64,000 bases of DNA from Isoetes taiwanensis (lineage: Eukaryota > Streptophyta > Lycopodiopsida > Isoetales > Isoetaceae), in the NCBI GenBank assembly GCA_021234155.1, contig JAJEKV010000012.1, forward strand, positions 9,638,448 to 9,702,447. The letters run 5' to 3'. Below are positions 7,651 through 61,699 of this stretch, piece after piece. The notes beneath the pieces were generated by a model that was not told where the DNA came from, did no database searches, and saw only the letters and a program-made list of their open reading frames with translations. How positions within the stretch are numbered: position 1 is the first letter of the stretch; every line of letters starts with the position of its first letter. Both the position numbers and the translations under genes were made by a program.

Positions 7651-10127
7651 AACGACACTCGGGTGAAGAAAAGGAGGGAGTGTCTCCGAGGGGGAAGCCA
7701 TCGGGCCTGAAAGTGATCCTCTCACGGAGTGAGGGACGGCACCATTATGGTAAATGCCAATGAGATCCCGGGCGTATTTGAAGAGCGGGAGGAGTGTTGA
7801 GCCCAAGGGCGGGATCGGGATCAATGAGAAAATGAGAGCGCACCATGTCTTCAAGGGCGGCATGGGCGCCGGAAGAAACAAACCGGCACTCCGTGAGAAG
7901 GGCGGTCACGGAGACCAAGGCACCGGGCCGGCATTCGGATTGCAGTGAAAGATGGGACGCTGCCGATTTAAAGAGCTGACCAGGATGCATTTGAGAGCAG
8001 CCACGTAAACGGCGGCGCTGACTTGAATCAAGGATACGGTGAGGTGGCGGCGTCGCAAGAAGGTGTCAAGACCATGAAGAGCATCATCAGGGCGTTGCCA
8101 ACCACGCTCATTGGGAATATAGATCCAATTAGTAGTGTTATCAAGGGTGGCACCATCCTCCCAATTGGAGCGGCGCACAAAACGGGGATCCCACCCAGGA
8201 GATCCGGCCGAGATCGGGAGGGAGTCCATCCAGCATGGCCATCCATGACCTTGGTCCAAAAGGGGAGACGCCAATCAGAGGTGAGGAACCTGGGGCGTGG
8301 AGGGACACCCAGGGAAGCATAGGGAGAGGGGACCATGCCCGTGGGCGTGGAGGCTGAGCCCGCCCCCCCGAATTCCACCGGACAAGAGGCGGATCAAGAG
8401 CTTTGCACCAATGGTCCCATGAACGTGGAGTCGAGAATTTACTGGGAGGGCTATCCCAACCCGTGGGGGACTGTCTTGCTATCGTAAGAGCACGGATTGA
8501 TTGTAACTGCGAGGTCTTTGCATATAAACTTGTGCAAAGGGAAGATCCTCAGGATGTCCCAGATACTTCCTTATCTGTTGCAGCGCCTCAGCTTGCCAGA
8601 GAGGCAAATGATGAGCGAGCTCCGGCATGTACTCTTGATGAAGAGCATGTGTCTGATCATGATCGTATTGAGATAGGGTTGTTATCCAAAAGCAACCATT
8701 GAAGTGTGGGATCACCCACGAAAGTTCGATGTGGCCCATCTCGAAATTTGTCCCGTGTATCGGCCGGATAGAAATCATGGAAAATGTGCGCCATTGGCTG
8801 AACAACTCGAAGGTGATCATATCCGGATCGTCCACGGTTGAATGAGATCAAAGACTAAAAGGGCACAGAATAAACCTTTGTCTTCAACGAGAGAGGTGCG
8901 GCCGGATCGAAGAAAATCCGCTGCGATCGCCAGGGGGGAACATCAACGGGACCATCAACCGTATGCCACTTGAGGAAGAAAGAGGTGGCGGCGGGCAACC
9001 ACATAATCGTGATAAGCTGGAAGGAATAGGGAAGTCAACAAAGCGGGTTGAGAGCAATGGTAACATAGCCTTCAAGTTTGGCTGAGCCTCATCGCCAGGC
9101 CCGAATAGCCTTCTTTGTAGTTTGTGTTGAGATCACGGATCCGGTTCTCCTTGTCTACCGTGAGCGTGATGGCCGGGTCGCGGACCCGTTTCGGAGAAGT
9201 TGTGACATGGGAGGAGGATGGCCCAGGAACCGTGAGTCGGAGCTTGGCAATCTCAGCGTCATCAAGAACTTTTACGTTTCGAGCCTCCTTAAAAGGCGAT
9301 CTTGAGAGATGTGAGTGAGAGGTTTGGCGTGGAAAGCCGAGCTTCCAAAGAGGCAATTTGGCGTCCACGCATTGTAAGGTCTTGAGCTTGAGTGTTGTAA
9401 TGCCGAGAGAGCTCTGTATACAGCGTGTCCAGTTTGGCAATGTTTTTTTCCTTATCAACCAAGAGAGTCTCTCTTGTCTTGACCTGCTCCGATAATTCCT
9501 GAAGGGTGGTCTGCAAGTGAGCCTGCTGATCGGTAAGCAGAGTAATCTGATGTTGGGCAGCCTTGAGATCTTCATGGGCCTGTAAAAGAGCCTCGTGCTT
9601 GTCTTGAAGCTGGGTCTCCAGAGTATTCACTTGCGTGGTAGCAGCTTGAAGGTCACGGTGAACCGCGTCGGAGGCCTCCAGGGCCGTTTGAACCCCATTC
9701 ATGAGAGCTTCTTGGGATTCTTGTATCTTGAGAGCAGCAGCTTGAACATCCTGGCGATCTTGATACAAAAGGCAGCGACGAGGGTCTTTGTGGTGGAGGA
9801 GCTTCTTTGTTGCCTTGTTTTTGCGATGTTTGTGAGACATGATGTGAACTGGAATGCTTTGATTACAGTAGCGGAGGAGGAGACGTGACATGTGAGTCGC
9901 GAATTTTGACATGACCCGAGGAAGAAGAAGGGCGTGAAGTGCCGACTTGGTGAGTCTGAGGAAGGGACCGCTGAGTGGAATCATGAGAATGAGGAGGTGT
10001 GGGAGGAAAGTAATGACAGATGAGGGCTTGAAGATGGCCTCCCACAGAAACTTCAGAGATAGAAGGGGTAGCCCGAAGACGGTCAACTTCTTGGAGAAGA
10101 CGGTAGAATAACAATTGGGGCCAATCA
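7651..10127 (-). pseudogene. Internal region of element C with coiled-coil ORF
   Basis: The clearest frame starts with ATG at 9840 on the minus strand (MSHKHRKNK) and runs to about 9289. It encodes a basic start and then about 150 residues of heptad-like Leu/Ala/Gln/Glu sequence (for example LETQLQDKHEALLQAHEDLK), a strong coiled coil. The reading then continues in other frames through 9.07 kb and, with weaker blocks, down to about 7.7 kb (for example HPEDLPFAQVYMQRP near 8.55 kb). I recognise no protease, reverse transcriptase or integrase. This fits a non-autonomous LTR element with a gag-like or captured coiled-coil protein. It is shifted in frame several times. The upstream part joins Ty3 remnant B abruptly near 10128. 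Confidence 0.45.
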
Positions 10128-13100
10128 TTAGTGACTTTTCGCTTCCCACAATCAATCACAGCTCTAGTCGGGCCAAGGTATTCCATGGCTATGATCAAGT
10201 CATACTTGCCGATGTTCATCACGTCTGCCCCCATGCCAAGATTGATACCTGGCAAGTCTATGTCGAAGTTGATCCTCTTTCTTACTGTGTGTCAGATTGT
10301 CCCACTTTCCAACACAACAGGCCTAGGCTTGGACTTCAAAGGCTTCAGCTTCAACATCTCTACCATCCTTGGCGAAGCAAAATTATGGGTGCTCCCCGTG
10401 TCTATCAACATTATGAAGGACTTGGCTTTGACTTTCCCAATCGTCGAGATGACCTAGTATTGACTCTCGGCATTCTCGGAGTCAATGGCAGCAAAGATAT
10501 AGCACTCATCCTAGATATAGTTGCAAGCATCTTCTTCGTCGTTCTCTGGGAGTGTCTCCCATCCTCCTAGCTCTGCTAGTGCCACATTCATCACAAAGGG
10601 ACAGTTGTGTGTCCGATGTCCCAGTTGGAAGCACCTGAAGCACAACTGCTTTTCAATACATTCTTGTTTCTTCTCCTTCGTAATGGACTGCAAGAACTGC
10701 TTCACTGTTTTAGAGTAGTTTGAACCACCCGCTTGCTCTTTATCCCTGAAGCTGACCTGCTTCTTGTCCTGCTTATCAAAATTTGCATTCCCTTGCTTTC
10801 CATAGTTTGCATTATACTGAGGTCTAGTAGCTGCCGGGCTTGTTGCTCTTGGACTATAGCTTCCCATAGCTTTTCCCTGTCCTGATAGTACTGCTGCTTC
10901 TATCCACTGCCTTGGGGAGTTGTTCCCTGTAAGCTCACGGTCCTGGACTCTGCTTCTGACGCTGTTCTGGGGTTGATGGCTCTCACAAGCTTCCTGATCT
11001 CCTCATTCAAGCCTTCAATGTACTCTTCTACTGCATGTCTTTCGCTCAACTTTGGCACATAGAGCCTAAGCCTCATAAACTCTTCGGTGTACTCTTGTAC
11101 CGTCTGCTGCATCATATGACATTTGTGTTCCCTCGGCATATAATGACGCTTAAATGCCTTGGAGAACTTCTTGAATCTGCAGCTATCTCTACTTAAACCA
11201 TGGGTTTGGCAAAGCCTTTCCACCAAATTCTGGCCGCTCCCTTGAGGTTGGTTGTCGCTACTCTGCCCTTGTCCTTATCTTTCATACTATAATCATTCCC
11301 GTATTCTCTCATTTTGTCCAATCAAGCCTCGGCTTTCATCCCTGACCTGTTATCTCCTGAGAACTATTTCAACTTCCTGGCTTTCCACACATTTCTCAGT
11401 GCGGAGTCGACTTTCTTCTGGTAGTCGACCTCATTCCTGCCCCTATCACGGTTGGGCCCTTCCCGGTGGTCCTATCAATCGTTATCCTGCTCCTCTGATT
11501 CTGAGTCAGTCAGAACTGGTGTTGGAGGAATCCGTACTAAGATATCTCCTTCTCTGGTTTCTCTTCTTTGTCTTGTCTATTCTGTCAGCAGGTGTCTGGG
11601 GTAGCTGAACGTTCTGGTCTGGTGCAATTACTGCCCTCCATGCCAGCAAGGCTCTTATCTCGTGGATCCGATCTCATTTGAGAGATCTCCTCTTCTGGGG
11701 CTGGTGCCTCGAACTCTTGGAATAGGTTCCTTGGTTGAAATCACCTTGCCAGTGTTTGCCCTTCCTGAGGGTGTCGATCTTGTTCTACATTCTTGGGTGC
11801 TCTAGCTGCATACACATTAGATTGCACTTCTATAATTAGCTTTTGTTTCTTGTTGCCTTGTTGTTTGATGATATAGTTGTGGGGACAAAATATATCAAAG
11901 AACATTCATAATGCCATCAATTATATTCATAAGGTACAATATTATTACAATCAAATAATAGAGAGAAGAAAAATTTTTAATCTATTCTTGGAATCTTCGG
12001 TATGCCGGGTTGCCTTCCAGGAATTTCTTCACTTGGGATGTACCAATTGTACGCCCCAAGTTTCTGAGAATGTTGGTGGGCGTACCACCTTGCAGTGCCA
12101 TTACTAGGTCTTCCACCTTTCTATTCGACGTATAGGTCGCAGTGACGAGCAATCTGCCCTAACATTTATATGGGACTGCGAAGTCGAATATGCTCAAGGC
12201 TATTAACCTCTTTATCAGTATGACATGGTCAATGTTCGGAGGCATCCGAGTATGCCTACCAAATCCTGAGAGGGCAATGAGCATGAACACCCTTTCTTCT
12301 CCCCTTGGGCTGAATTGCTGATGTATCACTGTTATCCTTCCGTCGATGAGGAGTGGAAGATAAAACCGGAGGGCCTTATCGTGTCCTCCATCTGCTGCCT
12401 CTTCTCCAATTATGATGCTTGCCCTGTGTCTTCCAGAGTACTCGTCCACTGGTACCGCTGTCAAGTCCCTGTAATCTGTAAACATGGACCTAGAAGAGGT
12501 CAAGTTGATGCCGCCTCTTTTGATCCCCGCTGACGCTGCTGATGAGGAGCTGGGCAGGAGCGTGCTTGTTGTCTTGCCCCTAATGTCCATCTATTCCTAG
12601 ATGGCTATAAATTCCTCCTCTGAGGGCAGCTCTTGTTGCGTCATCATTTGCCGAATGTTTCTGTAAGCTTCGATGTCGGATGATGACTGCCCCATGAAAG
12701 TGTGGGCTTTCCTGATGCTGATAGGGAAGTCTTGCGTCTCCCGTCGATGAAGTCATCGAGGTCGGCCTGTTGGCGCAGGAGATGCATGAGCTCGTCCAAC
12801 CTTTAGCCTTTGCCTCTGCACTCTGGAAGGTTCTTTATGTCGTGCAACATCATGTACTCTTGGCCTTCGATGATGATCGGGGTTAGGCTGGTGATGCCTA
12901 ACCCAAGTGGGGGAGCTGTCCTTGTTACCCTCAAGCCTTCGTCGAAGCCCTGAAGGTCTTGTTCTGCTTGTTGTCGTTCTTGTATGAGATCGACATCGAT
13001 GATGTCTTCGACGTCATATCCTTGTCCTTCTTCTTTCTCTTCCTCCTATTCTGACCCTTCATACTCCACGAGCAGTTGCTCTTCTGCTGCTAAGACAACG

Positions 13101-13200
13101 AGTTCTATGGCCATTGGCTGAATGGAGGGTTCACCTGTTTGGGTTTGGGCTCTATGGGACAAAAAGATGGCTACAGTAATAGTGTATGAGAAGTACCTCT
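10128..13200 (-). pseudogene. Ty3/gypsy gag-protease remnant B
   Basis: Minus-strand order is a gag N-terminal part (about 13.2-11.3 kb, broken into several frames), the gag core (11226-10900, with CRFKKFSKAFKRHYMPREH and a conserved EEYIEGLNEEIRKLV stretch), a zinc knuckle at 10642-10601 (C-F-R-C-x4-H-x4-C) and a retropepsin with intact LIDTGSTHNFA (DTG at 10402-10394). Then come LGMGADV and AVIDCGKRKV, typical of the end of plant Ty3 proteases. The sequence stops at about 10128, where element C begins. It is a different, better preserved copy than remnant A: the gag, knuckle and protease are present in both. It has the same orientation as the LTR and primer site at 20.66-22.2 kb, so it may be the body of that element. 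Confidence 0.8.
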
Positions 13201-16200
13201 TCCAGTTTATGGATATCTTCTTTTTTATTTTGGGATGGCTTTGATTTTGTGCTGAGAACGCCGCATGTAATGCTGCATGCGGCATTCCCTCTCCCCCTTC
13301 CGGCACACTTTTCTCTTGACAGGTCCTCCTCCGCTATTTTCAAAATCTAAAATTTTTTGGGCACATTTTCGAAGGAAAAGCATTCGTTTGGAGCAAAGGT
13401 AGGTAGCGGAGGTTAGCAGCAGCTGCATACAATCTGGTTTCTGCTTCAAAAGTTTCAAGGCCTTTCAAAGCTTTGTCTCTTCAGCATTAGCGACCCTTGG
13501 ACAGGGCGATGTGCGGCATTTGGCTCGCCTTTATCTCGAATGGGTTGCTTCCCAGACTTGCATTTTTCAGGTCCTTTTTTTCACTATCTTTTCCATGGCA
13601 TCAGATCTGCATCAATCGGCTCCTCCTTGCATTATCTTCTTTCCCCTTTCGTTTTTGACCGGTTTCGTCTTACCTTTTTGCTTCATCTATCCATTTCTGT
13701 GTTTGTAAGTTATTTTAGCTAGATTTGTCTGCCGCTAGAGCTCCATTCTTATGTTTCTTCCTGCATTTTAGAGTTTTTGTAATCTTTTGTTCCTCTCATT
13801 TAGAAGTTTGCTTGCGTCTGGCGTCTACAGGGATCTTCTGTTCAAGGGAAACCGTATTCAAAAGAAACAAGTTGAGATCTAATTCGTTTTCTTATCTATT
13901 GCAGATTTGGAGCAAGGGACATGCGCATTCCAGATTTTGTCTTGAGATGTCGTCTTGCTTTGGATCATTTCACATTATAATCTTTCTACCAACTGCATGA
14001 GGCCTGAGTGTTGTTTCATCTCTGCGGTAAATCTCTACCTCTCCATTTTTGCTTTCGTGTGGGCATTTAATTTAAAAGCTTTTAAGTTATCCATTTTTCT
14101 AACAAAGTTCCATCTCTGCTTTTGTGTGGGCACTCAGGTTCGGTTTTAAGCTTAGGTTGCTGCATCAGTTAACTGTTAAGCCTAAATCTTACAGGAACAC
14201 ATAGTATATGATGAACTAAATGCAGGAATCTGCAATCCTTAGCTCTGCCAGATGCCGGTACTTCACTATTCTTTTAGCTTGGTTTGTCTTTTCCAATATG
14301 CTTGCTCACTTGAATGTTTTGAATGCAGCTTTTTTGAGGGCAGGAAGGAAATTTTGGTAACAGAAAGAAATGAAGTGTAAGCATCTGCTTGAATGTAATG
14401 CTTTTATGTTATTACTGTATGTCTTCAGAGTCATGATTTGGAGTTCTGCATTGCTAATAAATGCCATGTTATGTAGGACAGGACTTGGTTATGTGTTGAA
14501 CAACATCAGATTTTATGTCTGGATTCTTCATGGTTATTTTACTTACTTGTATGTATCTTATTTGATAAAATAATGAGTGTTTGTGCAGAACTTAGAGCAA
14601 AGGGGATATACATAGTGGATGTACGCATAAATTCGTTTTTCTTACTTTAGCTGCATGTGGTAACTCCAGCTCTTTTTTAGCTGCATGTGGTAACTCCAGC
14701 TCTTTTGCAGCTTATTTGCCAAACGCCGTTAATGTGGTGAATGGTAACAAAAAGTTAAGGGAAAGCTGGGACTATTTACAAATAGGAAGGTAAGTCATGC
14801 TTTATTGTGACTCTATTATCCTTACATAGTGGCTTTGCTTTCTATCTATCTTTAAGGCCCCAAGACAAATTGTTGGCTGTTTGTGATAGTTCTTGCATTT
14901 AACATTCTGCATAGCAGCGTTTGCAGGTTAACTCCTGCATTTATAGCCATTGAGTTGAATATCGTCAACCTTGATGTGCTAACAAATTACAAAATCTGCT
15001 CATTCTTCTTTCTGCTCCAAAAGATTCTAAAATTATGCATGCCAAATAGTTGGATTTGCAAGGTTCAAATCCTTGGATAATGGATATCTGAATATGACGT
15101 AGTTTTCTGAATATAACATATACGACATTCGATCACATCTCTGTTTTGTGGGAGAAATATCAATATGACAACAAGTGCACATTTTAATGTTATGATAATA
15201 ATTATGGTGGCATTCAATTTGATTGAACTCTTGGTAGTGGAGAACATGGGCATAACATTAGCAACCTTATAAATTATCTTTTGTTTTCTTTTGTTAGAAT
15301 CCATTTCCATCCTTCATAAGGAAACTCTTGCTGGATACATTTTTGGAGTGATATGCATACCTTCCTCTTAATGGCTATTGTTTTTGTAGTTTGGTACATT
15401 ACCAAGTCTATAGCACATTCAAGTGCCTTCATATATAGCATACACACTGAGGATAAACACAATCTATGCTTATTCACACAGTGAAACATGACTATTATCA
15501 TTTCATGTTATCATGAACAACCACAAGTATGTATTGTGGTCATATTAACCAGTTCTTTATTCTTCCAACATTTATGCAATTTGCTCGGCTCAAACTTTTT
15601 AAATTGTTGTATCATTGTGCCAACAACTCTTTCTAAAAAATTTGAGTAATTGTTTTAAATGCAAAGCGTATAGCAAAGACCTTATGTCGGCAAATTATCA
15701 CGGACTAGATCACATCCATGTTTTATGTGAAGCTATTTACGTGAAGAGCTTTGGATGTTCTAGATAATACCAAGGATCTCTTATTTTGTTGTGAAATCAG
15801 TGAATAAGTTGGTGCACAAGCCCATGTATCAAAGAAGCATATATCTGTGCCCGTTCGACATCCCATGCAGCAAGGCAACGAATCAACAAATCTTTGTAGT
15901 ATGGTAAGAATGCAATCAGTAACATGGTTGCATGCTTCAAATAGCTCTCTTTCCAGTTTTAGCTGTTACTTTGCAAAACTGTACACTTCTTATATTTATG
16001 TTACAACTCTATGAGCTTTATGTGTTGCAGAGTAATTGTTGTTCTAGGCATTGGTGTTCAAGACAAAATTCCATGCAGGAAGGGGGGAACCAAATATTCC
16101 ATGCATGAATGCAGAAAGCACAAAAGTTCAGACCAACAATCTTAATCTAACATACCTTTGGTCATGCTGTCTCAAGATCTTAGATCTGCAAAGGATGGGG

Positions 16201-17651
16201 AAGAATATTGCGCCAAGCTTTTCGCCTTATTCTGGTCTGTATAGATTGAGATTTAAAGCATTAAATATGTTTCCACTTCAGGACTGGTCTGAATGATGCA
16301 GCACTCATAAGATTAGAAGCTCGTCATTGCAGTAAGTCAAGTATATGTTCTACTACAAAATAGTGGAAGCAAAATGTCATCAAGGGCTTCAATGTTGATT
16401 TCTCTCAGGTATTCACGACGTCCTTAGGGAATTTGATAGTTCTCATTTTATGCAGGGTTGCATCAGTGGCTGAGGGCTCACCTCTATGTAGGCATGTGCA
16501 GGCATCTTGCAGCCAAGGTAAGCAAGAAATCCTCCTTTTTATTTGTTAGAAATGTGTTTACCATGCTTCTATGATCATGACGGCAATTGGCATTTCAAAT
16601 AAGGTAACTACATAACATTGATGTTTTTTACTGTATATGTCTTATATGCGCATTAAGTTTCAGCTTCTTATGTAGATCAAAGAAAAAGCATTATACAATA
16701 CATGATGGGATAAGATTAAAATGAGGAGCTCATATTTGCTACATTTGTTGCTCACTGCAGCATTTGCTGACGCCTGTCAATGAGGTAATATTTTGTACCT
16801 TTTTGTTTTATGACATGCTATGCTGTCAAATAACCATATCAAGTTCGAGCTGCGGCATTTATGTTTTTTGAGCATTTTCCACCATAGAGATGTTGAACAT
16901 GATCATACATCCAGCTGTATTTTTTTATGAAACCATGTGACAAAATGGAAACACAAAACCACGTGATGCATTTTCTCCGAAACTTAAAAGAGATGTTGAG
17001 CCACCAAAATTAGGCTCACAGCCTGTTTGGAGCAGCCCTTTTGCCTCTTGCAGATTTCATGAATGCCCAAGAAAATTGACAAACTATGCCAAGTAATATT
17101 TAATTTGGCTGATGAAGCACTTATTTCTGTTTGGATTTGAACCAGGGAAGTCTCTAATTTGAAGGATGAGGCGACTGTAGTGTAGACCCATACCAGCAGT
17201 TTGCAATACTTTCTATCTTTGTACAACTTGAATATATGATGGCCATGGCTTTCACTTAGTTGAAATGAAGAAATTATACAATATAAATGTTAAATGGTTT
17301 CACTTAAGTGTTACTGTATTTTTCTAATTGTGAACAAACAAGTTTATGCAGTCATGGAAATAAATTTCTATATAATGTTTTTGAAGTACTACTACCAATT
17401 TTATATTGGCCACAAAGAACTTTCATTATTATAAGTAGGGTGTACAAGATTTGGCCTTTAACTTCTGCAAGGAACCGTCAACCCACGATAAGACATCTTT
17501 CACTTCACACACACTGGCTACAACATGTGTTTGCCAAAATGTATTTTTTCTTGAAACACCATTGTTTGACTACGCATTGGATCTGCGATCTTCCATAAAA
17601 CCCTAAATCATTGCACAAACTAATTCCCTCAACACTCTGCACCCATATATC
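13201..17651. other. 4.4 kb without a recognised gene
   Basis: Mostly AT-rich. On the plus strand a few short stretches look like exons framed by splice sites. An example is about 14711-14790, after TTTTGCAG and before GTAAGTC, which reads YLPNAVNVVNGNKKLRESWD in one frame. Another is 13511-13570, ending CATTTTTCAG. I cannot assign them to a family; they may be captured gene fragments. A 30-bp tandem duplication (TAGCTGCATGTGGTAACTCC unit) sits at about 14648-14707, just before that acceptor. No transposon ends were found except the Helitron end on the right. Confidence 0.35.
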
Positions 17652-17850
17652 ATCTACCCATTCAATTCCACCCTACACATTCATTATTCATATTCATACC
17701 ACGTGTTGCGGCTAATGTTCGACCTCTCTAGACCCTTCACATTGTGGACACGATCACATTTACAACTTTATCCACATAGAAACCCTATTATGTCTACTCA
17801 TTCCATACGTCTACGATTAATGCCCGGCATCGCCGGGCACACATTTCTAG
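17652..17850 (+). mobile_element. Helitron 1, 3' end certain, 5' end tentative
   Basis: The right end carries the hairpin GCCCGGCATCGCCGGGC (17822-17838), then ACACATTTCTAG ending at 17850, followed by host T. Hairpin plus CTAG before T is the diagnostic 3' end of plant Helitrons and is very close to the ends at 27270 and 40292. A candidate 5' end, A followed by TCTACCCATTCA, lies at 17652; it starts TCTAC like the other two Helitrons and would give a 199-bp non-autonomous element. If the true 5' end lies further left, part of 13.2-17.6 kb belongs to it. It is inserted in the second histone-fold-like gene. Confidence 0.6.
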
Positions 17851-18151
17851 TAGTCATGTAGTCAGGCATGCGAGCAGCTCTATTTTTTAAGTACTTGTCG
17901 ATGTTTGGAACATCATTCAATGCTGCTCGAAGGGCTGTTCTAGGTGCAAAGTACCCTATGCATGGGGGGAGATCTACCAGTGAAGGGCCTATCTTGGCTT
18001 GGAACTCTGTGATGATGTCTTGGTAGAATCGTGTGGCATTTATGGTATCCACGTCAATCTCCTTCTAAAAAACAGTGAAGACAGAATTGATGTCAGCCTT
18101 GGCCATATGAGCAGTGGCGCTGTACCATCGCCTGAATGATGAAGTGGCCAT
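17851..18151 (-). pseudogene. Putative divergent histone-fold gene (H2A/H2B type?)
   Basis: The frame opens with ATG at 18151 (MATSSFRRWYSATAHMAK), meets an in-frame TAG at codon 29 (18067-18065), then stays open in the same frame to the Helitron junction at 17850. The post-stop part has a long helix-like block (TRFYQDIITEFQAKIG), then FAPRTALRAALNDV and IDKYLKNRAARMPDY. The last part resembles the H2A segment in which P-R is followed four residues later by A, then N-D and K-L-L. An alignment to the end of the H2B fold is also possible. This is by eye and weak. Support comes from context: the TATA box and paired palindromes match those of the H3-like gene beside it. The stop and the Helitron make this copy defective. 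Confidence 0.35.
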
Positions 18152-18262
18152 TGTGCTGATGTAGATGGGATTAACAAACAGATGTGTGAGCACCTCTGTG
18201 AGCTGGAAAATCGCCTTGGAATGAGGAGTGATAATGTAGAATGCAAATGAGGGCGATGGTCA

Positions 18263-18270
18263 TATTTATA
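18263..18270 (-). promoter_or_regulatory. TATA box of the second histone-fold-like gene
   Basis: Minus-strand CCTATAAATA, with TATAAATA at 18270-18263, lies about 112 bp before the ATG at 18151. The identical CCTATAAATA stands about 105 bp before the H3-like gene, so the two promoters look like copies of one design. Confidence 0.6.
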
Positions 18271-18454
18271 GGCAGAACCCTAATTTGAAAAATTTTTAGG
18301 ATTTGGGAATGTCTATCACTTCAAGGTCCTATTAGGTATTTGATAGGTAATCTAGGGTTATGAGTAGATAGAGTACTTTCTAATGATCCTATTGCACAAA
18401 TTTCATCTAATTTGGAGGTAGTTGGAGTGAGCTAGGGCTATTTGACTCAGACCA

Positions 18455-18507
18455 CTCACACATCAAACAAGAGCCACTTTCAAAATTTTTGAGGCGCACT
18501 CTGTGAG
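18455..18507. repeat. Imperfect palindrome P1
   Basis: A 53-bp version of the repeated palindrome. It begins CTCACACATCAAACAAGAG, carries CACTTTCAAAATTTTTGA in the middle and ends GCGCACTCTGTGAG. About 10 bp are missing after the AT core compared with P2-P4. It lies about 185 bp upstream of the TATA box at 18270. Confidence 0.75.
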
Positions 18508-18647
18508 GCGCGTGCTCCTATTTGTGTCCTAGATGGCTCTAAAATTATGGTATAAGGGTAGAATCCTACTTATCTCGCGGAGTTAAGCCGGATATGCTCT
18601 TAGTTTCTGCTTTTGGACAAGTCTAGGCATAGATCAGTGGCCAAACA

Positions 18648-18710
18648 CTCACACAGTATGCGAGAGGCACTTTCAAAATTTTTGAAAAGGGCCCTGGCGC
18701 ACTCTGTGAG
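18648..18710. repeat. Imperfect palindrome P2
   Basis: 63 bp. Outer arms CTCACACAGTATGCG and GCGCACTCTGTGAG are complementary to each other apart from a few bases. The core TTTCAAAATTTTTGAAA is itself self-complementary. It stands between the end of the H3-like gene and P1. Confidence 0.8.
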
Positions 18711-18818
18711 GGGTGGGGTCTATTCAGTCACTTTTTGGCCAAATTAATTAATACAAATTACACATGCCATTAATACAACCATAATAAGTACATTATTACA
18801 TTACACTTTGCAACTTAA

Positions 18819-19951
18819 TTAAAAACACTTTTTATATTTACAATTATAAGTACATATGAATCTGGCCAGTTTCATATCCCTAGGCATGCACATGACTCTT
18901 TTCGCATGGAGAGCACATGCTAGGGAGTCTTCAAAATGCTCGGCTGCCTCCTGCAATGCAAGCAACATGTCGTCTGTCACTCGCTTCTCCTTGTTGAACT
19001 CTTGCAAGATCTCGCGGGTCAGTCTTAAAAACGCGGCTCTTGGTATAAGAAGTCCATAGCTTCTCTGGAAATGCCAAATCTCCTGAGTATCTTTTGCGAA
19101 GTATGAATCTGTCTTCCTCTTCATGGACTTCTTTGATAGTAAGGGTCTCTCTGGGGGCGGCTTCACAGTGTTCCCTCTTGTTGGCCTTCCTCCTTCCACG
19201 TACGTGACCTTTTTGCTTCATAGTACCTGAGTACGCCTCGTACATCTTCATGTACTCCTTGTACTCCCTCAGATTCTTCTTGTACTCCTGCTCATGCTTG
19301 AGTACGTATGGCTCACGTGCCGGCTTGACCTTCTTAGGATCTATTGTTGCCTTTGGCCATGTCGGGTAGGGAGGTGGTGCTGCAGCTTCTTCATTCTCGA
19401 AATTGAAAGGTCCCGATCCTTCTGTTGGGGCGTGGAATCCTCCAAGCATCATCGTCCGACTCCATTTCAAATGAAGAGGATGGCGGCCTATCGGGCTCTC
19501 GCTCAGTTATTTTAACCCCTTTACTTGATGTGCTATTGGTTTTCCTTCGGGGTTTCTTCAGCAACTCTGGGCCTTTCCCTTTCGCCTCCTTCTGCTTCTT
19601 GCGCTCCTCCTTCTCTGCAAGTCTCCTTCTTTTGGCTGCCTTCTTCATCTTGTCGACTTTCCTTTGGCGCCGAGCCGACTCCTCTTTTGCTGCACGGTCC
19701 TCCTCATTCTCCTCCTCTGCATCCCCATGGCTCTGATTCTCCGGGTTCTCTTGATGATCAGGATCTTGTTGTTGCTCTTGTTGGCCCTGATACTGTTCGT
19801 TGTCCTCTTGAGTGTCAGGGTTTGGGTTTAAATATTCTTCATTTCTGGCTCGCTCTCGAGCTTCCCTCGCCTTCTGTTCTGCCGCGAGAACTTGAACGCT
19901 TGTAGATCCATCTGGCATAACCACTCGAGCAGTCTGTTTGGTGCGGACCAT
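18819..19951 (-). pseudogene. H3-tail and H3-fold protein with long charged middle
   Basis: The ATG at 19951 is followed by VRTKQTAR, seven residues of which equal residues 2-8 of mature histone H3 (A-R-T-K-Q-T-A-R), with Val replacing the first Ala. Next come an acidic, Gln-rich part (about residues 35-80), a Lys/Arg/Glu-rich basic part and, in a second frame, a Lys/Tyr-rich helix (EYKKNLREYKEYMKMYEAY), weakly like the last HMG-box helix. In a third frame, 19094-18858 aligns with the H3 fold: HFQRSYGLLIPRAAFLRL matches KYQKSTELLIRKLPFQRL, then LTREILQEF, LALQEAAE and ACALHAKRVMCMPRD. H3 residues Cys110, His113 and Asp123 have counterparts. About five residues of helix 2 are missing after LQEAAE. 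Frame changes near 19440 and 19213 (an A run) mean that this copy is a pseudogene unless an intron or editing joins the frames. Confidence 0.7.
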
Positions 19952-20055
19952 ATTTTGAAATAATTCGATCGCCTTCCGAGCACCTAGAAATCGCCTTCTT
20001 GGTCGGAGAGCGGCAAGCTGGAGGAGTACGGTGAAAATGAAGAACCCTAAGGGTT

Positions 20056-20063
20056 TATTTATA
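20056..20063 (-). promoter_or_regulatory. TATA box of the H3-like gene
   Basis: Minus-strand CCTATAAATAAACCC, with TATAAATA at 20063-20056, about 105 bp before the ATG at 19951 and about 115 bp downstream of palindrome P3. Core sequence and distance match the neighbouring gene's TATA box. Confidence 0.65.
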
Positions 20064-20177
20064 GGTCTGGGAGTTTTAGGATTCCGACCTGCAATTTCAT
20101 GTTATGCCATTATTTAAAACATTAGTATTTGCTGGATTAAGACATTAGATTCTTTTAGACAAAAAGTATTGCTATCA

Positions 20178-20240
20178 CTCACACCGTGCACGAGAGGCAC
20201 TTTCAAAATTTTTGAAAAGGTCCTGGGCGCACTCTGTAAG
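20178..20240. repeat. Imperfect palindrome P3
   Basis: 63 bp, arms CTCACACCGTGCACG and GCGCACTCTGTAAG, core TTTCAAAATTTTTGAAA. Closest palindrome upstream of the H3-like gene. Confidence 0.8.
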
Positions 20241-20390
20241 GGGTTACTCCCTTTTTGCTCTATTTTTTATTTTCTATACAGTTTCTTAGTGTTAGAATAT
20301 GTTTTCATGGCTTAAATTCAAAATTTAAGCTACCCTGAGCTATCAGATTACTCTAATCATGCATTTTTCTAGGTCAAAATTGGTCATACA

Positions 20391-20453
20391 CTCACATAGT
20401 GTGCGAGAGGCCTGTTCAAAAATTTTGAAAAGGGCATGGGCGCACTCTGTGAG
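20391..20453. repeat. Imperfect palindrome P4
   Basis: 63 bp, arms CTCACATAGTGTGCG and GCGCACTCTGTGAG, core TTCAAAAATTTTGAA. It lies 150 bp further upstream than P3, and about 205 bp from the tRNA primer site of the LTR. Confidence 0.8.
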
Positions 20454-20658
20454 GGGTTGCTCCCTAATGGCCAATTTTTTTTAGGGTTTCTACTATTTCT
20501 TTCTTAATTAACATTATCTTAATTTATTGTTCTAAGGATTGGAATTTTTTTCCCAAATTTTGAGGTTCATGCTTAGGTTGTTATCCCCAAGGCTGAAGGT
20601 CTACTGTTAGTCCTATCACGGAAATGGTCAATGCCTGATCTTGGTCTACCAAGGTCAT

Positions 20659-20671
20659 GGCTCTGATACCA
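20659..20671 (-). other. tRNA-iMet primer binding site
   Basis: Minus-strand TGGTATCAGAGCC lies three bases after the end of the LTR at 20675. This is the standard plant LTR-retrotransposon primer site complementary to the initiator tRNA-Met 3' end. It marks this LTR as the 5' LTR of a minus-strand element whose body runs to lower coordinates. Confidence 0.85.
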
Positions 20672-20674
20672 CTA

Positions 20675-22198
20675 TGACGTCCCCTACTTCGTCTACGATG
20701 CTCCCATCATATCGGAAGGCGGAGTTCATCCCCCTGGCAGCCAAGCTGGCAGAGGTTGTCCACCTGACACCAATCCTTTAGCAAGGGATCGATGAGGAAG
20801 AATGGACGGGTCATTTGTCCCTTCCCTCGGGACCGTCCTAGCTACAGAAGCATAAATAAACATAAGCGCATGACATCAAATACAAATAGAGCCATCTCGA
20901 AGGGTGGTTATACCATAGCATCCATGTATAAGCACATCAACAACATCATCATCAAATGGAAGATCCTATCCAAGGCTCAGACTCTAAAGGTATGGACTGA
21001 CGGCTTGGGTCTCCAGAAGCCGCATTGCAGACATAATTCATGAGAGTGGATTGGGCTGGCATAGGAACATGGCTGTCGGGAAGTCCTCTCCATCCGCCCC
21101 TCCTGTGCATACTTTGCAAAATAGATCGAAGAGCCTTGGGACTGGACCGTAGCCTGCCGGGTGCATAGCCAAGAGGGCTACTACTGGGTTTCATCTTCTT
21201 AGCCCCAATGAGGCAGAAAGGGGATCATCTCCTCCAGAGGCACACATGTTCATCACAGGCGGCTAGAGGGCCACTACTCGTCTACGGCTTGAACCTCATT
21301 GAAGGTGACGCATCACCCAAGAGGTGTCGAGCACATGCCTTGCCCACACGCAGTGGCAAGCCATTAAGCCTAGCCCGCTAAGATCGCTGGTAGGATTTAC
21401 ACACCAGAGGGATCAATCTGCAATGGGACATGTTCTCCTTATTCCACCGGTCTAGCCCCGCCACTCACGAAGCTCTTATGCACAGGCCGCATTAATTGGG
21501 AATTATTGAGGCTATCTAAATACATCGATTACCGAAGCTTTCAGGGTCTCTACCCCCCTTCCCAATACACAGGAGTGCGCATAGAATAGAACAGCATCAT
21601 CATCATCAAAGAACTGAAATACAGAATAATATCTAATCTATCTACCTAAACATACATGGTTAGATTCATTAGTTAGGGCTTGTGATCTCAGGATCTATAA
21701 GGCCGCTAGCGCTGATCTAACATGCTATCCCAGCTCATTGTCGGACTAAAAGTCGGCATTGCACAACAGAATCACTGGTTACCTGATCCCTGGCTTGCTC
21801 CTGCTCCTCTAATCACGTCCATGCCTTTGCTTGGGTCGAAGGCAGCTGATCCTGGAAGATTCTTTGTGCAAAATCGGCTTGGCGGCGTCTAGCACTGCGA
21901 AGTAGCAGCTTGGCTTGGTCGGAATGGCCCAAGGAAGCCAAAATGTGAAAATAGAAAAGGTTAAGAGTTTCCCCTTTTGTTCCTTTTACATGACTTTTTA
22001 GGTTTAGGGTTAAAGGACATATGGGATTTTGCCATGAGGCAAGGGAGGGGTTAAATGTATATGTTTATAGACATGCAACATACAAGGTTGCCCCCTAGGG
22101 TGCAACCCTTTATGGTTCCCAAATACATGTCATCATGTACGAGTGGCGTGGCAGTATAATATACGTATTCAGACCGTGTATTATGCTGGAATGTCACA
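20675..22198 (-). repeat. 5' LTR, same family as 59084-61699
   Basis: On the minus strand it runs from TGTGACATTCCAGC (22198) to GGGGACGTCA (20675), with TG...CA ends, about 1.52 kb. Long blocks match the plus-strand LTR at 59084-61699, for example GATTGGTGTCAGGTGGA and GGGGGATGAACTCC near one end and TATTATACTGCCACG near the other. The TATA position of the other copy (TATATAAGG) reads ATGTAAAAGG here, so this promoter may be weakened. Confidence 0.8.
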
Positions 22199-25100: not shown

Positions 25101-26037
25101 CAAGCATAAGCTTGCAATATTTTCGTTTGGTATTTGCGGGCAATATTTCAGGCATGGTTGGGCCAAGATTTGGCCTTGTATTGTATGGGAAATTGTATTT
25201 AAACTGTATTTTTTAATTGATTTGAGCTGCTTGTTGGCCGAGATGAAGGTAGCATTCCAAAATCGGCTCAAGGCATGTGTTTTTTTTTTTGTTGTTTCTA
25301 TGCATGGTTTGAGGATAGAAGGATAAGAATACATGCTGCTTTCTTTTTTCAGCAAGGGCGGCAATGGATCCCAGCGGGCAGGCTTGAAGGCAAGAGTTCT
25401 GCCATCACCTATGGCGGATGAAGCCCACGACTTTTTCTTTTTGTGTTATGTTGTGTCTTTGTTCTATTTCTGTTTATGTTATGTGTTCTTCTTCTTGGGA
25501 TTGAGGAGAAGCGAGATTTGGTTGCTGGAGTAGCTGAGATTTGGTTGCTATGACCCTTACCATCTGCGCTGTCATCTGGTACCGACCGAGACCTCCCTGT
25601 TTTGTCTAAGGGGCAATGGATCCCAGCAGAAGGCGGGTTTAGAGGCACGTTGACAGTGTGGTTCGGCACAGGCTACCTGGTCGGGGGCTACGATTTCTAA
25701 GACCGATGAGCTTGATTCGGAGGCCCTAGAACAGAAGTCTAGTTGATTCCTAGGACCCCAAAGACTTTGTCAGACAAACAAGGAAATCAGAGACATGGAT
25801 TGTAATATTTTTTCAAAAAATCAAGGCCGCCCAGTTGGCGAGAGTTATAGTGTAGAAATCTAGCAAGGATAGTAGAGTATTCTTTTGATGTTAATGTTGA
25901 TGGATTTGCTGCTGTCATTTGCCATCGTGACAATTTAGGAAGTCTGGCTTAATATATCTATGCTTTGTTTTTCTTTACATTTAGGTGCCTCTCTGCACAT
26001 GGCAAGCCTCTTGTTCCAGCAAGATGTACAAGATGTA
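22199..26037. other. 3.8 kb without a recognised gene
   Basis: AT-rich sequence with scattered short open frames and no family motif. At about 24910-24992 a 41-bp unit (AGTGYCAMGTGACACGACGC) is tandemly duplicated. GGCAATGGATCCCAGC occurs twice (25362 and 25613), each followed by a G-rich stretch, suggesting an old duplication. No transposon ends identified. Confidence 0.4.
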
Positions 26038-26320
26038 CAAGACCAAATGTACATTTATGGTAGGTGGCACTAGGATGGTGAGCTAAAAAAGCCTTACTTT
26101 GTTTAAGGTCCATACTAGACTAATCTTGTACAGACTAGCTAGTTTATCGCACCGCCTTGCGGCAGCCAAAGTGGAGGACAAGACCAAATGTACATTTATG
26201 GTAGGTGGCACTAGGATGGTGAGCTAAAAAAGCCTTACTTTGTTTAAGGTCCATACTAGACTAATCTTGTACAGACTAGCTAGTTTATCGCACCGCCTTG
26301 CGGCAGCCAAAGTGGAGGAC
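26038..26320. repeat. Tandem duplication, 141-bp period
   Basis: Two almost identical units. GACCAAATGTACATTTATGG starts at 26041 and 26182, and AAGTGGAGGAC ends at 26179 and 26320. Each unit ends with the CTAGTTTATC plus CCGCCTTGCGG module described separately. The right unit runs directly into the roughly 390-bp repeat at 26321. Confidence 0.85.
26139..26162 (-). mobile_element. Helitron-like 3' terminus on the minus strand (1 of 5)
   Basis: On the minus strand, hairpin CCGCAAGGCGG is followed by TGCGATAAACTAG, that is hairpin, about ten bases, CTAG: the layout of a Helitron 3' end. The same module occurs at 26280-26303, 26671-26694, 40639-40662 and 41022-41045 (GGGATAAACTAG or GGGATGAACTAG variants). 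This suggests that the surrounding repeat derives from a minus-strand Helitron family. No 5' terminus was found, so the assignment is tentative. Confidence 0.4.
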
Positions 26321-26714
26321 ACTATAGGCTTTTAAGTTCTACCACGTCGGGGATCATCATCGTATACCCCTAGTAACCAACATCCAAATATAAATGACAT
26401 TGACAAGGTTTGAACCCATGACCAAATGTACATTTATTTTGGCATTACTAGGCCTATACCAACTCACCACACATCCGTTGGGCAAAACTTTTGCCTTACA
26501 TGCACACTTTGTAGGCAGGATTTAATCCCGCCTTAGAAAGTCTAGGTCCTAGGGCAACTCTAGGGGCATGGCTTTTTAGCCTCACCATCCTAGTGCCACC
26601 TACCATAGTTCCATTGTTTTTTTTATTACTTTGTTTAAGGTCCATACTAGACTAATCTTGTACAGACTAGCTAGTTTATCCCACCGCCTTGCGGAAGCCA
26701 AATGGAAGACACTA
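26321..26714. repeat. About 390-bp repeat, left part of the Helitron target site
   Basis: Starts ACTATAGGCTTTTAAG, contains GGTTTGAACCCATGACC and TAATCCCGCCTTAG, and ends GGAAGACACTA. Two more copies lie at about 40293-40683 and 40684-41045. The junction ACTA|TAGG between consecutive units is filled here by the Helitron pair: this copy ends in ACTA at 26714 and the sequence resumes with TAGGCTTTT at 40293. Confidence 0.85.
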
Positions 26715-27270
26715 TCTACTTGCTGGAACTTGAGGTATAAAATGGTTTCTGCAGCTATGTCATCTTTTTTGTCTGTAGCTCCACTTTGTCGTATAAGCAA
26801 GAAAAGCAGCCCATTTTGCAACTATCATATCTGTAGAGATAGAAGCGTATGCAATTATAGCACTCTGTTTTTAGATGGAAAGTAAAAAGAAGTTTGCTAA
26901 TGCTGTCAATAATTCTCTCAATGTATGATGACAATTTGTCTGTTATTTTATATCTATTGCAAGAAATACAGCTGGATTATTATACCACTGGATTCCTGTA
27001 CAAAGGTACCATTTCAAATGATTTTCATCCATAGGTGACTTAAATGCATCAACTCTTCCGGTTAATATTTGGGCCAAGATGAATTGCTGCAGAGAACGAC
27101 TTTCTTTGTGAAACAATCTGTTAATCATCTCACATCCGAAAATAGAATAGAATGAAGCAACATCAAAATTTATAGTTATAACACAAAGACGTCGTAGAAG
27201 TACGTCATAGAAGTACATGCCAGCCATTGTCAGGACATTAGCCCGGCAACGCCGGGCACCCGTTTACTAG
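26715..27270 (+). mobile_element. Helitron 2, non-autonomous (556 bp)
   Basis: It begins TCTACTTGCTGG after host A (26714). It ends with hairpin GCCCGGCAACGCCGGGC (27240-27256), then ACCCGTTTACTAG at 27270. It lacks Rep and helicase. Its last 45 bases closely match the end of Helitron 3, and its first bases (TCTACTTRCT) match that element's start, so it is a deletion derivative of the same family. It is joined directly to Helitron 3 without intervening host sequence. Confidence 0.85.
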
Positions 27271-30716: not shown

Positions 30717-30792
30717 GAATGCTTATAATGTTGTGGATAGCCTAAATTATAATGTTGCGATAAGCCTAAATTGATATATGATTGCGCGTATC

Positions 30793-36140: not shown

Positions 36141-36332
36141 TCAAACTTCCTCCCTCCCCCTTCTTCCAACTTATCCCCTTCCATTACTTCTCTCAACTTT
36201 TCCCCGAACTTCTCCCCTTCCCTTCCCCTTCCCCTTATCTAACAACGATTCAATGTAAAAAAATTTGTCCCATTTTCAGTCTGAGTCCCAAAATTCGAGA
36301 TTTGTCCCACTTTAATTAAATACGACTTATTG

Positions 36333-40245: not shown

Positions 40246-40292
40246 ACATGCCCAGGACATTAGCCCGGCAACGCCGGGCACACGTTTACTAG

Positions 40293-59231: not shown

Positions 59232-59976
59232 CATGTGACGTTCCAGCATAAGTATATTATACTGCCACGTCACACGTACATGTCATCATGACAAGTACTT
59301 GAGAGCCGTAATAAAGGGCTGCACCTAGGGGGCAACTTCGTGAGTTGTGCATGTGCATTAAACATATACAACTAAACCCCCTTTGCCAAGTGGCAATAAC
59401 CCATTGGATCCTTTCTAACCTAACCCTAAAAGTTCATATATAAGGAACTAAAGGGGAAACCCTAAACCTTTTCTTCTTTCGCAATTAGGGTTTCCCTGAG
59501 CCATTCTGGCCAAGCCAAGACCCTAGTCCGCATTGCCAGGTATCGAAAAGCCGCATTTGCACAACAGATCTTCCAGGAGCAGCAGCCTTTAGCCTGAACA
59601 AAGGCATGGACGCATTCCGAGGAGCTGGAGCGAGTCAGGGATCAGGTAAATAGTCATTCTGTTGTGCAATGCCGATTTTTAGTCCGGCAATGAGCTGGTT
59701 TAGCATGTTAGTTCAGCCTTAGAGGCTTTATAGATCCCGAGATCACAAGCTCTAACAAAAGAACCTAACTATGGATGTTTAAGTAGATAGATTATACATT
59801 TCAGTTCTTTGATGATGATGGTTATTTCACTCTATGTTCTCCTATGTGTTGGGAAGGGGGGTAGAGACCCTGAAAGCCTCTGTAGCAGATGATCCTAGAT
59901 AGCCTCATTAATTCCCAATTAATGCGGCCTGTGCACAGGAGCCCGCCTGGTTGTGGGTGGCGGGGCTAGACCGGTT

Positions 59977-61384
59977 CACTACAAGAGAATGTCTGCTTCG
60001 CGTCAGAAAATTCGTCAGATTCCCTTCACAGATGTGGTTCAGGCCAGACACATATGGCTGACGCATATTCTGACGAATATTTTCTGACGAAATATCGTCA
60101 GATTTTTCGTCAGGTTATTCGTCACAAATCTTACGTTTATTCTGACGATTATGCGTTAGAATAATCGTCATAATTTACGTCACAACTTTCGTCAGAATAA
60201 TCGTCATATTTTTCGTCATAATTTTCGTCAGACTATTCGTCACAATTTACGTCAGAATTTTCGTCGTGCATTTCGTCATATTTCTCGTCATAATAGTCGT
60301 CAATGTTTTCGTTAGTTTTATCATCACAATTTTCGTTAGTATATCCGTCAATATGCATGGACATTCGTCAGAAAGTTTCATCATTTTTGTTATAATTATT
60401 AGGTAAAGATGTAAATTGAGTTTGTTTAAAGTGGTTTAGTATAACAATTGAAGTGTTTGGAGTAGTTTTCCAAGTAAAGTTGTTCAAAGACAACATGCTG
60501 CCATTTGGTTATTCTCGTCAAGCATATTTCACCTTTCTATTTTATAGAAAGGCTAATAAGGTACAATGAACAAGCTAGAAAACCCCAAAAGAAACTTTTG
60601 ATGTATTATGCAAAAATTTGATTCCAACAATCACTGAGTTTAGCCAATATTTTTACTCTCCGGTAACTTCTTTCTTACAAAGATAGCATACAAATACCAA
60701 TAGTGTATCAAAAATATACCTTTCCTCTACTAAGGTACTACAATGTCCTTTTTCATGTGTCCCTGTTGGCCATCAACGATGGCTTGGCCCAAATGCCACA
60801 TGTCAAGAGACGAGAACTTTCAAACATGTTCCAGAAAATTATCCTAAAATTGCTTGCAAAGACTCTGCATAAAAACAGGCATGCCCATCAGAATTCTTGC
60901 AACTTCGACAAACAACTTCTCAACCTTAAATTCACATGGTAAACTTACCACAATCCCCACATACGATATGTTACTATAAAGCCTTCCATTCTGATGCACT
61001 TGCCCACTATATTGAGCAAATTCCTCACACCTTCACGTTCCGTCCAATCCTGATTAGATCTAACCTCGTTATTATATGCCAATGATATTACTAAATCAAT
61101 TTTAATAACCGGCAATAGCTTTCTCAAAACTTTGTTCTACAACTAGAGGTGGGCATTACAATACATCATGGACCGTATTAGCAACTCTGCTACAGAGCGT
61201 AGACAGTTTGCTTACAAAAAACAGGACATTGAAATGAAATGTCTGAAAAGCTTTCATTTCCAATCCTATGCAGTATGCTATATCTCAGTCTTGATTCTTT
61301 GTGGTCCTATGAGAAATGGTAGTTTGTAAGCCTATTCTGAGCTATTAGTTTCACAAGCTTCCAATGGACATGAATCCCCCACAA
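59977..61384 (+). mobile_element. CACTA-like insertion in the LTR, one end only
   Basis: It starts CACTACAAGAGAATG after the LTR sequence CTAGACCGGTT and is followed by about twenty TTCGTCAGA/ATTCGTCA-type motifs in 59998-60370, a subterminal array. LTR homology resumes near 61385 (AGTCTGAGCCCTGGGTAGGA), but about 460 bp of LTR present in the other copy are missing and no opposite TIR is seen. The insertion was probably followed by a deletion that removed its right end. No transposase recognised. Confidence 0.65.
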
Positions 61385-61699
61385 GTCTGAGCCCTGGGTA
61401 GGATCCCCTTTATGTTGCTAGTACTTATGTTGATGTATTGTTCATGTGATGATTATGATGTATTCACTCTTTGGGTGACTTTATTGATGTATTGTTGTCA
61501 TGTGCTCATGTTTATTCGCGCTTCCGCAGCTAGGTCGACCTGAAGGAAGACGGGGCAAATGACCCATCTACTCTTCCCTTGCTGGCTCAGTCCTTGGGAT
61601 TGGTGTCAGGTGGATGGCCCTGCCGGTTTGGCTGTCAGGGGGATGAACTCCACCTTCTGATACGATGAGAGCATCGTAGAGGAAGTAGGGGACGTCACA

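What the first reader, a model, noticed from the sequence alone, without database searches (positions are those of the whole stretch)
17851..20671. Histone-like two-gene cassette next to a retrotransposon LTR
Between a tRNA-iMet primer site (20659-20671) and a Helitron end (17850) lie two minus-strand genes. One combines a near-exact H3 tail with an H3 histone fold. The second is a possible H2A/H2B-type fold. They share the same TATA element (CCTATAAATA, about 105-112 bp before each ATG) and each has two copies of one palindrome upstream. A Ty3 gag-protease in the same orientation lies at 10.1-13.2 kb. One reading is that an LTR element picked up, or evolved, divergent nucleosome proteins with their own promoters, which could package its DNA or interfere with host chromatin. 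The other is an independent cassette that the LTR merely adjoins.
Basis: partly seen in the sequence, partly recalled or inferred. Interest (0 to 1): 0.9.

Follow-up and report, generated by a model that had tools for sequence, protein, structure and literature searches.

The report
Retrotransposon carrying its own histone H3
A large family of jumping genes in what appears to be a quillwort genome carries its own divergent histone H3 gene, which keeps the tip of the normal H3 tail and evolves as a working gene, so these elements may be able to dress or disguise their own chromatin.

Summary
The window holds a decayed chromovirus-type Ty3 LTR retrotransposon. Between primer site and gag it carries a histone H3-like gene (H3 tail tip, long charged middle, H3 fold; Pfam 1.8e-14) and a second gene, not a recognisable histone, split here by a 4.6 kb Helitron. 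The held host genome has at least 150 scored fold matches, many in frames of about 400 codons. Four insertions show paired LTRs and 5-bp target duplications; pol includes a chromodomain. dN/dS of the H3 fold is about 0.07, close to gag and integrase. Between subfamily C and A/B the first ten residues, MARTKQTARK, are the best conserved block. MARTKQT codons occur 2,727 times (reversed control 0), against 15 host-like H3 genes listed. A related family D (RT 79%) carries an H3 fold 84-87% identical to canonical H3. In the window each gene has its own TATA box and two hairpin elements upstream. Assembly size and piece count nearly equal those of Isoetes taiwanensis. Ten paper searches listed no retroelement-encoded core histone. 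Shown: an element-borne, selected H3 with an H3-tail tip. Not shown: expression, nucleosome incorporation, function.

The parts
20673..22198 (-). 5' LTR (about 1.53 kb), starts TGTGACATTCC, ends GACGTCATA next to the PBS
   Evidence: same-strand LTR at the matching position in 9 of 10 fetched copies
20660..20671 (-). primer binding site TGGTATCAGAGC (iMet type; tRNA name recalled)
   Evidence: same motif in relatives L030, L031, L032
20383..20463 (-). hairpin element D1, copy 1 of promoter 1
   Evidence: nhmmer; aligned with 38 other copies
20170..20250 (-). hairpin element D1, copy 2 of promoter 1
20056..20065 (-). TATA element of gene 1 (CCTATAAATA)
   Evidence: TATAAA at -109 in 4 of 7 relatives
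18819..19951 (-). gene 1: H3-like protein (broken here by two frame changes and a 15-nt in-frame deletion)
   Evidence: intact relatives 394-415 aa
19925..19951 (-). H3 tail-tip codons MVRTKQTAR
18855..19088 (-). H3 histone fold
18640..18719 (-). hairpin element D1, copy 1 of promoter 2
18448..18516 (-). hairpin element D1, copy 2 of promoter 2 (not in the alignment)
18263..18272 (-). TATA element of gene 2
   Evidence: TATAAA at -119 in 4 of 7 relatives
17852..18151 (-). gene 2, 5' part (one stop codon)
   Evidence: tblastn with an intact relative, 65%
13216..17850 (+). Helitron (TC...CTAG) inserted at an A|T in gene 2; not part of the element
   Evidence: gene 2 continues in frame across the joined flanks
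11985..13215 (-). gene 2, 3' part (stops and frame changes)
   Evidence: 61-64% to an intact relative
10328..11836 (-). gag (capsid, CCHC knuckle, start of protease)
10115..10324 (-). first 70 residues of the following pol frame; element is cut off beyond
59234..61699 (+). solo LTR of the same family, target duplication GTTCA on both sides, with an internal insertion

Best explanation
WHAT IT IS (shown). A lineage of chromovirus-type Ty3 LTR retrotransposons carries, between primer site and gag, a gene for a divergent histone H3 and a second gene of unknown fold. It is not a passenger: families that differ over most of the protein keep it, it evolves under strong purifying selection, and in the window's relatives (A, B, C) it keeps the tip of the H3 tail (ARTKQT, often ARTKQTARK), the best-conserved block between subfamilies. 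HOW IT IS EXPRESSED (inferred). TATA boxes at fixed distances before both genes, and conserved hairpin elements in A/B and at least one C-like copy, suggest two internal promoters. HOW IT WORKS (inferred, about 0.4). The fold keeps many H4- and H3-contacting residues and loop arginines, so the protein probably pairs with host H4 and enters nucleosomes on element copies or newly made element DNA. There the tail tip offers H3K4-type docking to host readers and writers while the long, element-specific middle replaces the rest of the tail. This would favour transcription of the element or guide its chromodomain-bearing integrase.
For: Copies: 150 scored fold matches (capped); 104 scored loci with a full-length query. 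Of 10 two-part copies fetched (chosen for long open frames) 9 have the LTR upstream, 8 the PBS leader, 10 gene 2 next, 8 gag. LTR pairs: C1033 96.2% TSD GCAGA, C1049 94.2% ACATC, C985 94.0% AAGTA; family D 93.5% CCAAG. Domains in relatives: Histone 6.6e-22, RVT_1 4e-41, integrase, Chromo 4.5e-10. dN/dS within subfamilies: fold 0.07 (A, 15 pairs), 0.09 (C1085-C952), 0.068 (C, 6 pairs of 4 copies), 0.08 (D, 1 pair); gene 2 0.06, gag 0.08, integrase 0.09, one pair each. Tail: block 1-10 identity 0.95 between one C copy and 8 A/B copies, 0.03-0.26 over residues 11-60, mostly 0.40-0.79 in the fold region. MARTKQT codons 2,727 sites, control 0; MARTKQTARK 1,051, control 0; 5 of 5 sites picked have an H3-fold fragment downstream. 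Residues R69, R72, R83, C110, H113, R116, T118, D123, L126 are kept in the one representative each of A, B, C and D looked at. Hairpin arm 19-mer: 1,070 exact sites, control 0.
Against: No transcript, protein or chromatin data. Helix alpha-2 chaperone-site residues 87-90 are not kept in A-C (DMLL/EMLL; D has FAIL), so canonical chaperones may not deposit it. R63 is lost in A-C. The two B copies read lack A7 and K9, and D has no ARTKQT tail (MAITKS...), so the tail role is not universal. Within subfamily A residues 1-40 as a whole have the highest dN/dS (0.32). Hairpins: none found in C copies L029 and L030, two in C-like L043 (E 6e-6 and 3e-5); D was not scanned with the hairpin profile, and blastn with the window's promoters gave no match there. 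Strict TATAAA near -109/-119 is missing in C952, C1045 and C1085. Many copies carry stops. In a 5.8-billion-protein set the window's gene 1 matched only two proteins, over 21% of its length, that is the fold; intact gene 1 was not searched there. AlphaFold of the window's broken fold was uninformative (pLDDT 55.5).
Confidence: 0.6

Rival explanations
1. Soluble H3-tail mimic: the protein is not built into nucleosomes but offers ARTKQT(ARK) as bait, tying up host enzymes and readers of the H3 tail that silence the element (for example H3K4 demethylases or H3K9 methyltransferases).
For: The tail tip is the best conserved block (0.95), the following 50 residues are not; the alpha-2 chaperone site is lost in A-C.
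Against: The fold is under strong selection too (dN/dS about 0.07), with interface residues kept; a pure bait would not need it. D has the fold but no tail.
Confidence: 0.28
2. Packaging protein: the H3-like protein condenses element nucleic acid inside virus-like particles or in the pre-integration complex, like a structural histone.
For: Gene sits upstream of gag; lysine/arginine-rich middle; histones are found in Marseilleviridae particles (PMC9145170, passages read).
Against: A separate internal promoter suggests it is not made with gag; a packaging role does not explain why the H3 tail tip is kept.
Confidence: 0.12
3. Passenger: a transduced host H3 gene without function for the element.
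For: LTR elements do pick up host sequence; many copies are broken.
Against: Low dN/dS in A, B, C and D; same gene order retained in diverged families.
Confidence: 0.03
4. Independent host cassette that an LTR happens to adjoin.
For: In the window alone the 3' LTR and most of pol are missing; one of ten copies (C1085) shows no same-strand LTR upstream.
Against: Repeated fixed order inside LTR pairs with target duplications.
Confidence: 0.01

Closest known systems
Single H3 histones of DNA viruses (xenomavirus, Dishui Lake phycodnavirus, sylvanvirus; reviewed in PMC9145170, passages read)
   Same: A mobile parasite carries a lone H3 with an H3 fold and sometimes an extended N-terminus; origin from a host H3 is likely.
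   Different: Those are DNA viruses with folds 73-87% identical to H3 of a possible host. Here it is an LTR retrotransposon with thousands of tail-tip sites in one genome, fold identity to canonical H3 from 84-87% (D) down to 46-56% (A, B, C), and a tail tip kept ahead of a replaced middle.
Bracovirus H4 with extended tail (PMC9145170, passages)
   Same: Single parasite-borne histone with a tail extension; the review says it enters host nucleosomes.
   Different: H4, delivered by wasps to caterpillars, not self-spreading by reverse transcription.
Plant chromoviruses (Ty3/gypsy with a chromodomain in integrase; description recalled)
   Same: LTRs, iMet-type PBS, gag-PR-RT-RNaseH-IN-chromodomain, 5-bp target duplications.
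   Different: Two extra genes before gag, one of them an H3.
LTR retrotransposons with captured ORFs (bdelloid rotifers, PMC5408684, passages read)
   Same: Accessory genes gained by LTR elements.
   Different: There exonuclease- or esterase-like ORFs; the word histone does not occur in that paper's main text.
CENH3 (centromeric H3)
   Same: Some fold residues (HFQ, LLIP, VTLMR in subfamily C) recall plant CENH3.
   Different: Loop 1 has canonical H3 length; the tree does not support a CENH3 origin (node support 41 and 50).

Membership tests
Core histone H3 | significant match to the histone fold, H3 type best | tested here: met
   Window Pfam 1.8e-14, PDB H3 4e-15; relatives 6.6e-22, profile vs PDB H3 1.6e-24
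Core histone H3 | tail beginning ARTKQTARK | tested here: met
   Exact in 6 of 6 A copies read and in 2 of 4 C copies whose start was found (8 C pieces looked at); the 2 B copies read have ARTKQT[VT]RI; window VRTKQTAR; D (2 copies) lacks it
Core histone H3 | tail residues 10-40 and RPGTVAL before alpha-1 | tested here: not met
   Replaced in A, B, C; D keeps RKPHRFRPGTVALREI
Core histone H3 | assembles into nucleosomes | not testable with these tools
   Needs an experiment; interface residues mostly kept
CENH3 | longer loop 1 than canonical H3 | tested here: not met
   Loop 1 same length as H3 (alignment)
CENH3 | groups with CENH3 in a tree | tested here: inconclusive
Chromovirus (Ty3/gypsy LTR retrotransposon) | LTR pair, TSD, PBS | tested here: met
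   in relatives; the window copy has only the 5' LTR
Chromovirus (Ty3/gypsy LTR retrotransposon) | RT-RNaseH-integrase with chromodomain | tested here: met
   in relatives; the window copy is cut off early in pol
Chromovirus (Ty3/gypsy LTR retrotransposon) | placement in a named chromovirus lineage by RT tree | not tested
   No named reference RTs at hand
H2A/H2B histone (gene 2) | histone fold | tested here: not met
   No histone match in Pfam, PDB, NCBIfam or PHROGs; by sequence only, no structure model
Helitron (insert in gene 2) | 5' TC, 3' hairpin + CTAG, insertion at A|T, empty site | tested here: met

The most novel reading that the evidence does not exclude
A retrotransposon lineage has evolved its own nucleosome identity: it makes an H3 that pairs with host H4, keeps only the tip of the host tail as a docking code, and, together with its chromodomain integrase and a second protein acting on its hairpin promoters, builds a private chromatin state that escapes silencing or guides integration, with H3 possibly captured more than once (diverged A-C, near-canonical D).
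Probability: 0.33. Interest if true: 0.97.

Novelty: new variant of a known kind. Interest (0 to 1): 0.92.

Why it matters
Core histones carried by selfish DNA are known to me only from DNA viruses and polydnaviruses (PMC9145170, passages; the word retrotransposon does not occur in that review's main text). Here an LTR retrotransposon lineage with thousands of tail-tip sites carries H3. Its host appears to be a sequenced quillwort, so transcripts, chromatin and protein can be studied directly. The copies form a natural experiment on which parts of H3 a parasite needs: in A-C the tail tip and the fold stay while the rest of the tail is free. They also test the idea of histone mimicry, because the same element encodes both an H3-tail tip and a chromodomain, the kind of domain that reads H3 tails.

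Tried and rejected
Second gene as H2A/H2B: no support; the only weak matches were unrelated and below curated cut-offs (for example NCBIfam PRK10183 for D gene 2, 21.5 of 77 bits). Introns as the cause of the frame changes in gene 1: rejected, since 8 relatives read straight through. CENH3 origin: unresolved, weak nodes. Structure: the AlphaFold model of the window's fold was poor (pLDDT 55.5), so no fold search was made. Viral-contig searches for gene 1 and gene 2: no relative. Protein database: the gene 1 read-through matched two H3/CENH3-like proteins of about 300 aa over the fold only; the fold ORF gave 16 proteins of at most 51% identity; gene 2 gave one relative, P0020, 45% over 99%, from an unnamed sample. 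Crossing the capped hit lists gave gene 2 within 12 kb of 17 of 150 H3 hits and H3 near 29 of 89 gene 2 rows; the lists are capped and favour different subfamilies, so these are lower bounds. Ten paper searches listed no paper whose title or abstract start names a retroelement-encoded core histone; the library is open-access only, and supplements were not available.

Rows left out before counts: the hairpin alignment used 36 of the 37 fetched copies found and 3 of the 4 window copies; the tail start was read in 8 of the 10 fetched A/B-type copies (not in C1045 and C146); C dN/dS used 4 of 8 C pieces; the second tree left out the window.
Full report
WHERE THE WINDOW LIES. The window is part of a 1,658,258,908-base assembly in 1,110 pieces. 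The published Isoetes taiwanensis assembly has 1658.30 Mb in 204 scaffolds plus 909 contigs (PMC8566536, passages read). I infer that the host is this quillwort; no tool named it. That paper reports LTR elements at 15.72% of the assembly; the word histone does not occur in its main text nor in that of the I. sinensis genome paper (PMC10541799, passages).

WHAT IS IN THE WINDOW. On the minus strand a 5' LTR (22198-20673) is followed by a primer binding site (20671-20660), two hairpin elements, a TATA box, gene 1 (19951-18819), two more hairpin elements, a TATA box, gene 2, gag and the start of pol, where the element is cut off. Gene 1 starts MVRTKQTAR and ends in an H3 fold. The copy is decayed: two frame changes, and five residues missing in helix alpha-2. 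Gene 2 is split by a Helitron at exactly 13216-17850; the joined flanks read RMPDYMTISINWKRY, where intact relatives have RLPNYMSISVNRRRY. A solo LTR of the same family, with target duplication GTTCA, lies at 59234-61699.

COPIES IN THE GENOME. A search with the window's fold scored 150 of 7,572 first-look candidates (a cap), all above threshold and including the window itself; with a full-length relative, 104 loci were scored. I fetched ten copies in two parts each, chosen for long open frames. All ten have gene 2 after gene 1, nine the LTR upstream on the same strand, eight the primer-site leader and eight gag; C1085 has no same-strand LTR upstream and, like C146, no gag match. Three have LTR pairs 94.0-96.2% identical with perfect 5-bp target duplications. 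The pol of relatives encodes RT (4e-41), RNase H, integrase and a chromodomain (4.5e-10), so the element is a chromovirus. Gene 1 was read in eight of the ten: 394-415 aa, beginning MARTKQTARKV (6), MARTKQTVRIV (1) or MARTKQTTRIV (1).

FURTHER FAMILIES. Subfamily C (gene 2 60-63% identical to A) also carries gene 1 between primer site and gene 2. Of eight C pieces, four show the start: MARTKQTARK twice, MARTKQTTRK once, MARTGVIARV once; the C fold ends KGERP, close to canonical RGERA. Family D, found with canonical H3 as query, has a 412-aa gene 1 with another N-terminus (MAITKS...) and an H3 fold 84-87% identical to canonical H3 (Pfam 3.8e-41), a distant gene 2 (hhalign probability 91, E 1e-6), and, in the one copy followed further, RT 79% and integrase 78% identical to A, LTRs 93.5% identical and target duplication CCAAG. 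In that search the first 15 of 150 scored loci are host-like H3 genes (96-98%), and the other 135 are 71-86% identical, many in frames of 400 aa or more; only two of these 135 were examined, and both are D elements. The fold tree puts A, B and C in one clade apart from everything else (support 100) and D beside canonical H3 (support about 70); whether there was one capture or two is open.

SELECTION. dN/dS (Nei-Gojobori, within subfamilies because dS saturates between them): A, 15 pairs: fold 0.07, linker 0.08, middle 0.15, residues 1-40 0.32; C1085-C952: fold 0.09; C, 6 pairs among 4 of 8 pieces: fold 0.068; D, one pair: 0.095 overall, fold 0.083; for comparison gene 2 0.06, gag 0.08, integrase 0.09, one pair each. 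The fold is thus held about as tightly as the element's core genes.

THE TAIL TIP. Comparing one C copy with eight A/B copies in blocks of ten residues, identity is 0.95 for residues 1-10, 0.03-0.26 for 11-60 and mostly 0.40-0.79 in the fold region. Codons for MA(R/S)TKQT occur at 2,727 places, with 0 for the reversed pattern; MA(R/S)TKQTA(R/S)K at 1,051, with 0. These counts are conditioned on the pattern and include host H3 genes. Five recurring codon variants were picked by hand; all five sites have an H3-fold fragment on the same strand 0.7-1.3 kb downstream, though in all five the frame that starts at this ATG is broken before it. Codons vary while the residues stay, so the constraint seems to be on protein.

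THE PROMOTERS. In eight copies including the window, gene 1 has two hairpin elements upstream (one of them incomplete in some copies) and gene 2 two or three. TATAAA lies at -109 to -112 before gene 1 and at -119 before gene 2 in the window and four relatives (5 of 8); in C952, C1045 and C1085 it is missing there as a strict motif. Of five further copies, three have TATA at -109 to -113. Two C copies show no hairpin element, a C-like copy has two, and D was not scanned with the profile. The hairpin arms are near invariant over 39 aligned copies, and two inner pairs change on both sides in 14 and 12 copies while staying paired; the copies are related and were found with a profile from the window, so these are not independent events. 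The arm 19-mer has 1,070 exact sites, control 0. On contigs C1 to C901, for which the printed site list reaches, I compared the listed gene 1 loci with the sites by hand: 12 of 16 loci have one within 1.5 kb on the same strand; C69, C112, C289 and C723 do not.

MECHANISM. Shown: an element-borne, selected, H3-fold protein with an H3 tail tip. Kept in one representative each of A, B, C and D: R69, R72, R83, C110, H113, R116, T118, D123, L126 (their roles in H4 pairing, the H3-H3 bundle and DNA contact are recalled). Lost in A-C: R63 and the alpha-2 chaperone site. The most economical inference is a protein that pairs with host H4 and puts an H3K4-type tip on chromatin linked to the element; a soluble bait is the main rival. 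The chromodomain in the same element makes a role in targeting possible, but K9, the classical chromodomain target (recalled), is missing in B and D.

NOVELTY. Ten full-text searches (listed under Tried and rejected; listings seen) found no retroelement-encoded core histone. The review of viral histones (PMC9145170; passages) covers DNA viruses and polydnaviruses and does not contain the word retrotransposon in its main text. Subscription literature and preprints were not searched. One gene 2 relative (45% over 99%) comes from an unnamed sample, so the element may exist in another species; whether it carries gene 1 there is unknown.

LIMITS.

Noticed in passing
window 4352-6881, minus strand: A second, older relic of the same retroelement clade (gag about 50%, RT 63% to relatives), without a detectable gene 1.
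   Followed up: partly
window 57093-58973, plus strand: A different chromovirus, pol only about 28-40% identical to the H3-bearing lineage; no H3-like gene was detected on that strand of the window.
   Followed up: partly
window 27267-27271 and 40289-40293, plus strand: Two more Helitron 3' ends with the same hairpin type (GCCCGGCAACGCCGGGC...CTAGT).
   Followed up: no
L031 and L032: Family D elements seem to lack a usual CCHC gag between gene 2 and RT; an unknown ORF of about 165 aa sits there instead, yet the L031/L039 element shows an LTR pair with target duplication.
   Followed up: partly
L023 (G000:C952:8521342-8531341): One H3-bearing element appears to lie within gene 2 of another H3-bearing element closer to the window's subfamily.
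   Followed up: no
window 50740-51662; 26037-26715 and 40288-41047: Long tandem or dispersed repeats, 80-100% identical.
   Followed up: no
window 30782-39250, plus strand: Large open frames of 702, 584 and 374 codons, not identified.
   Followed up: no
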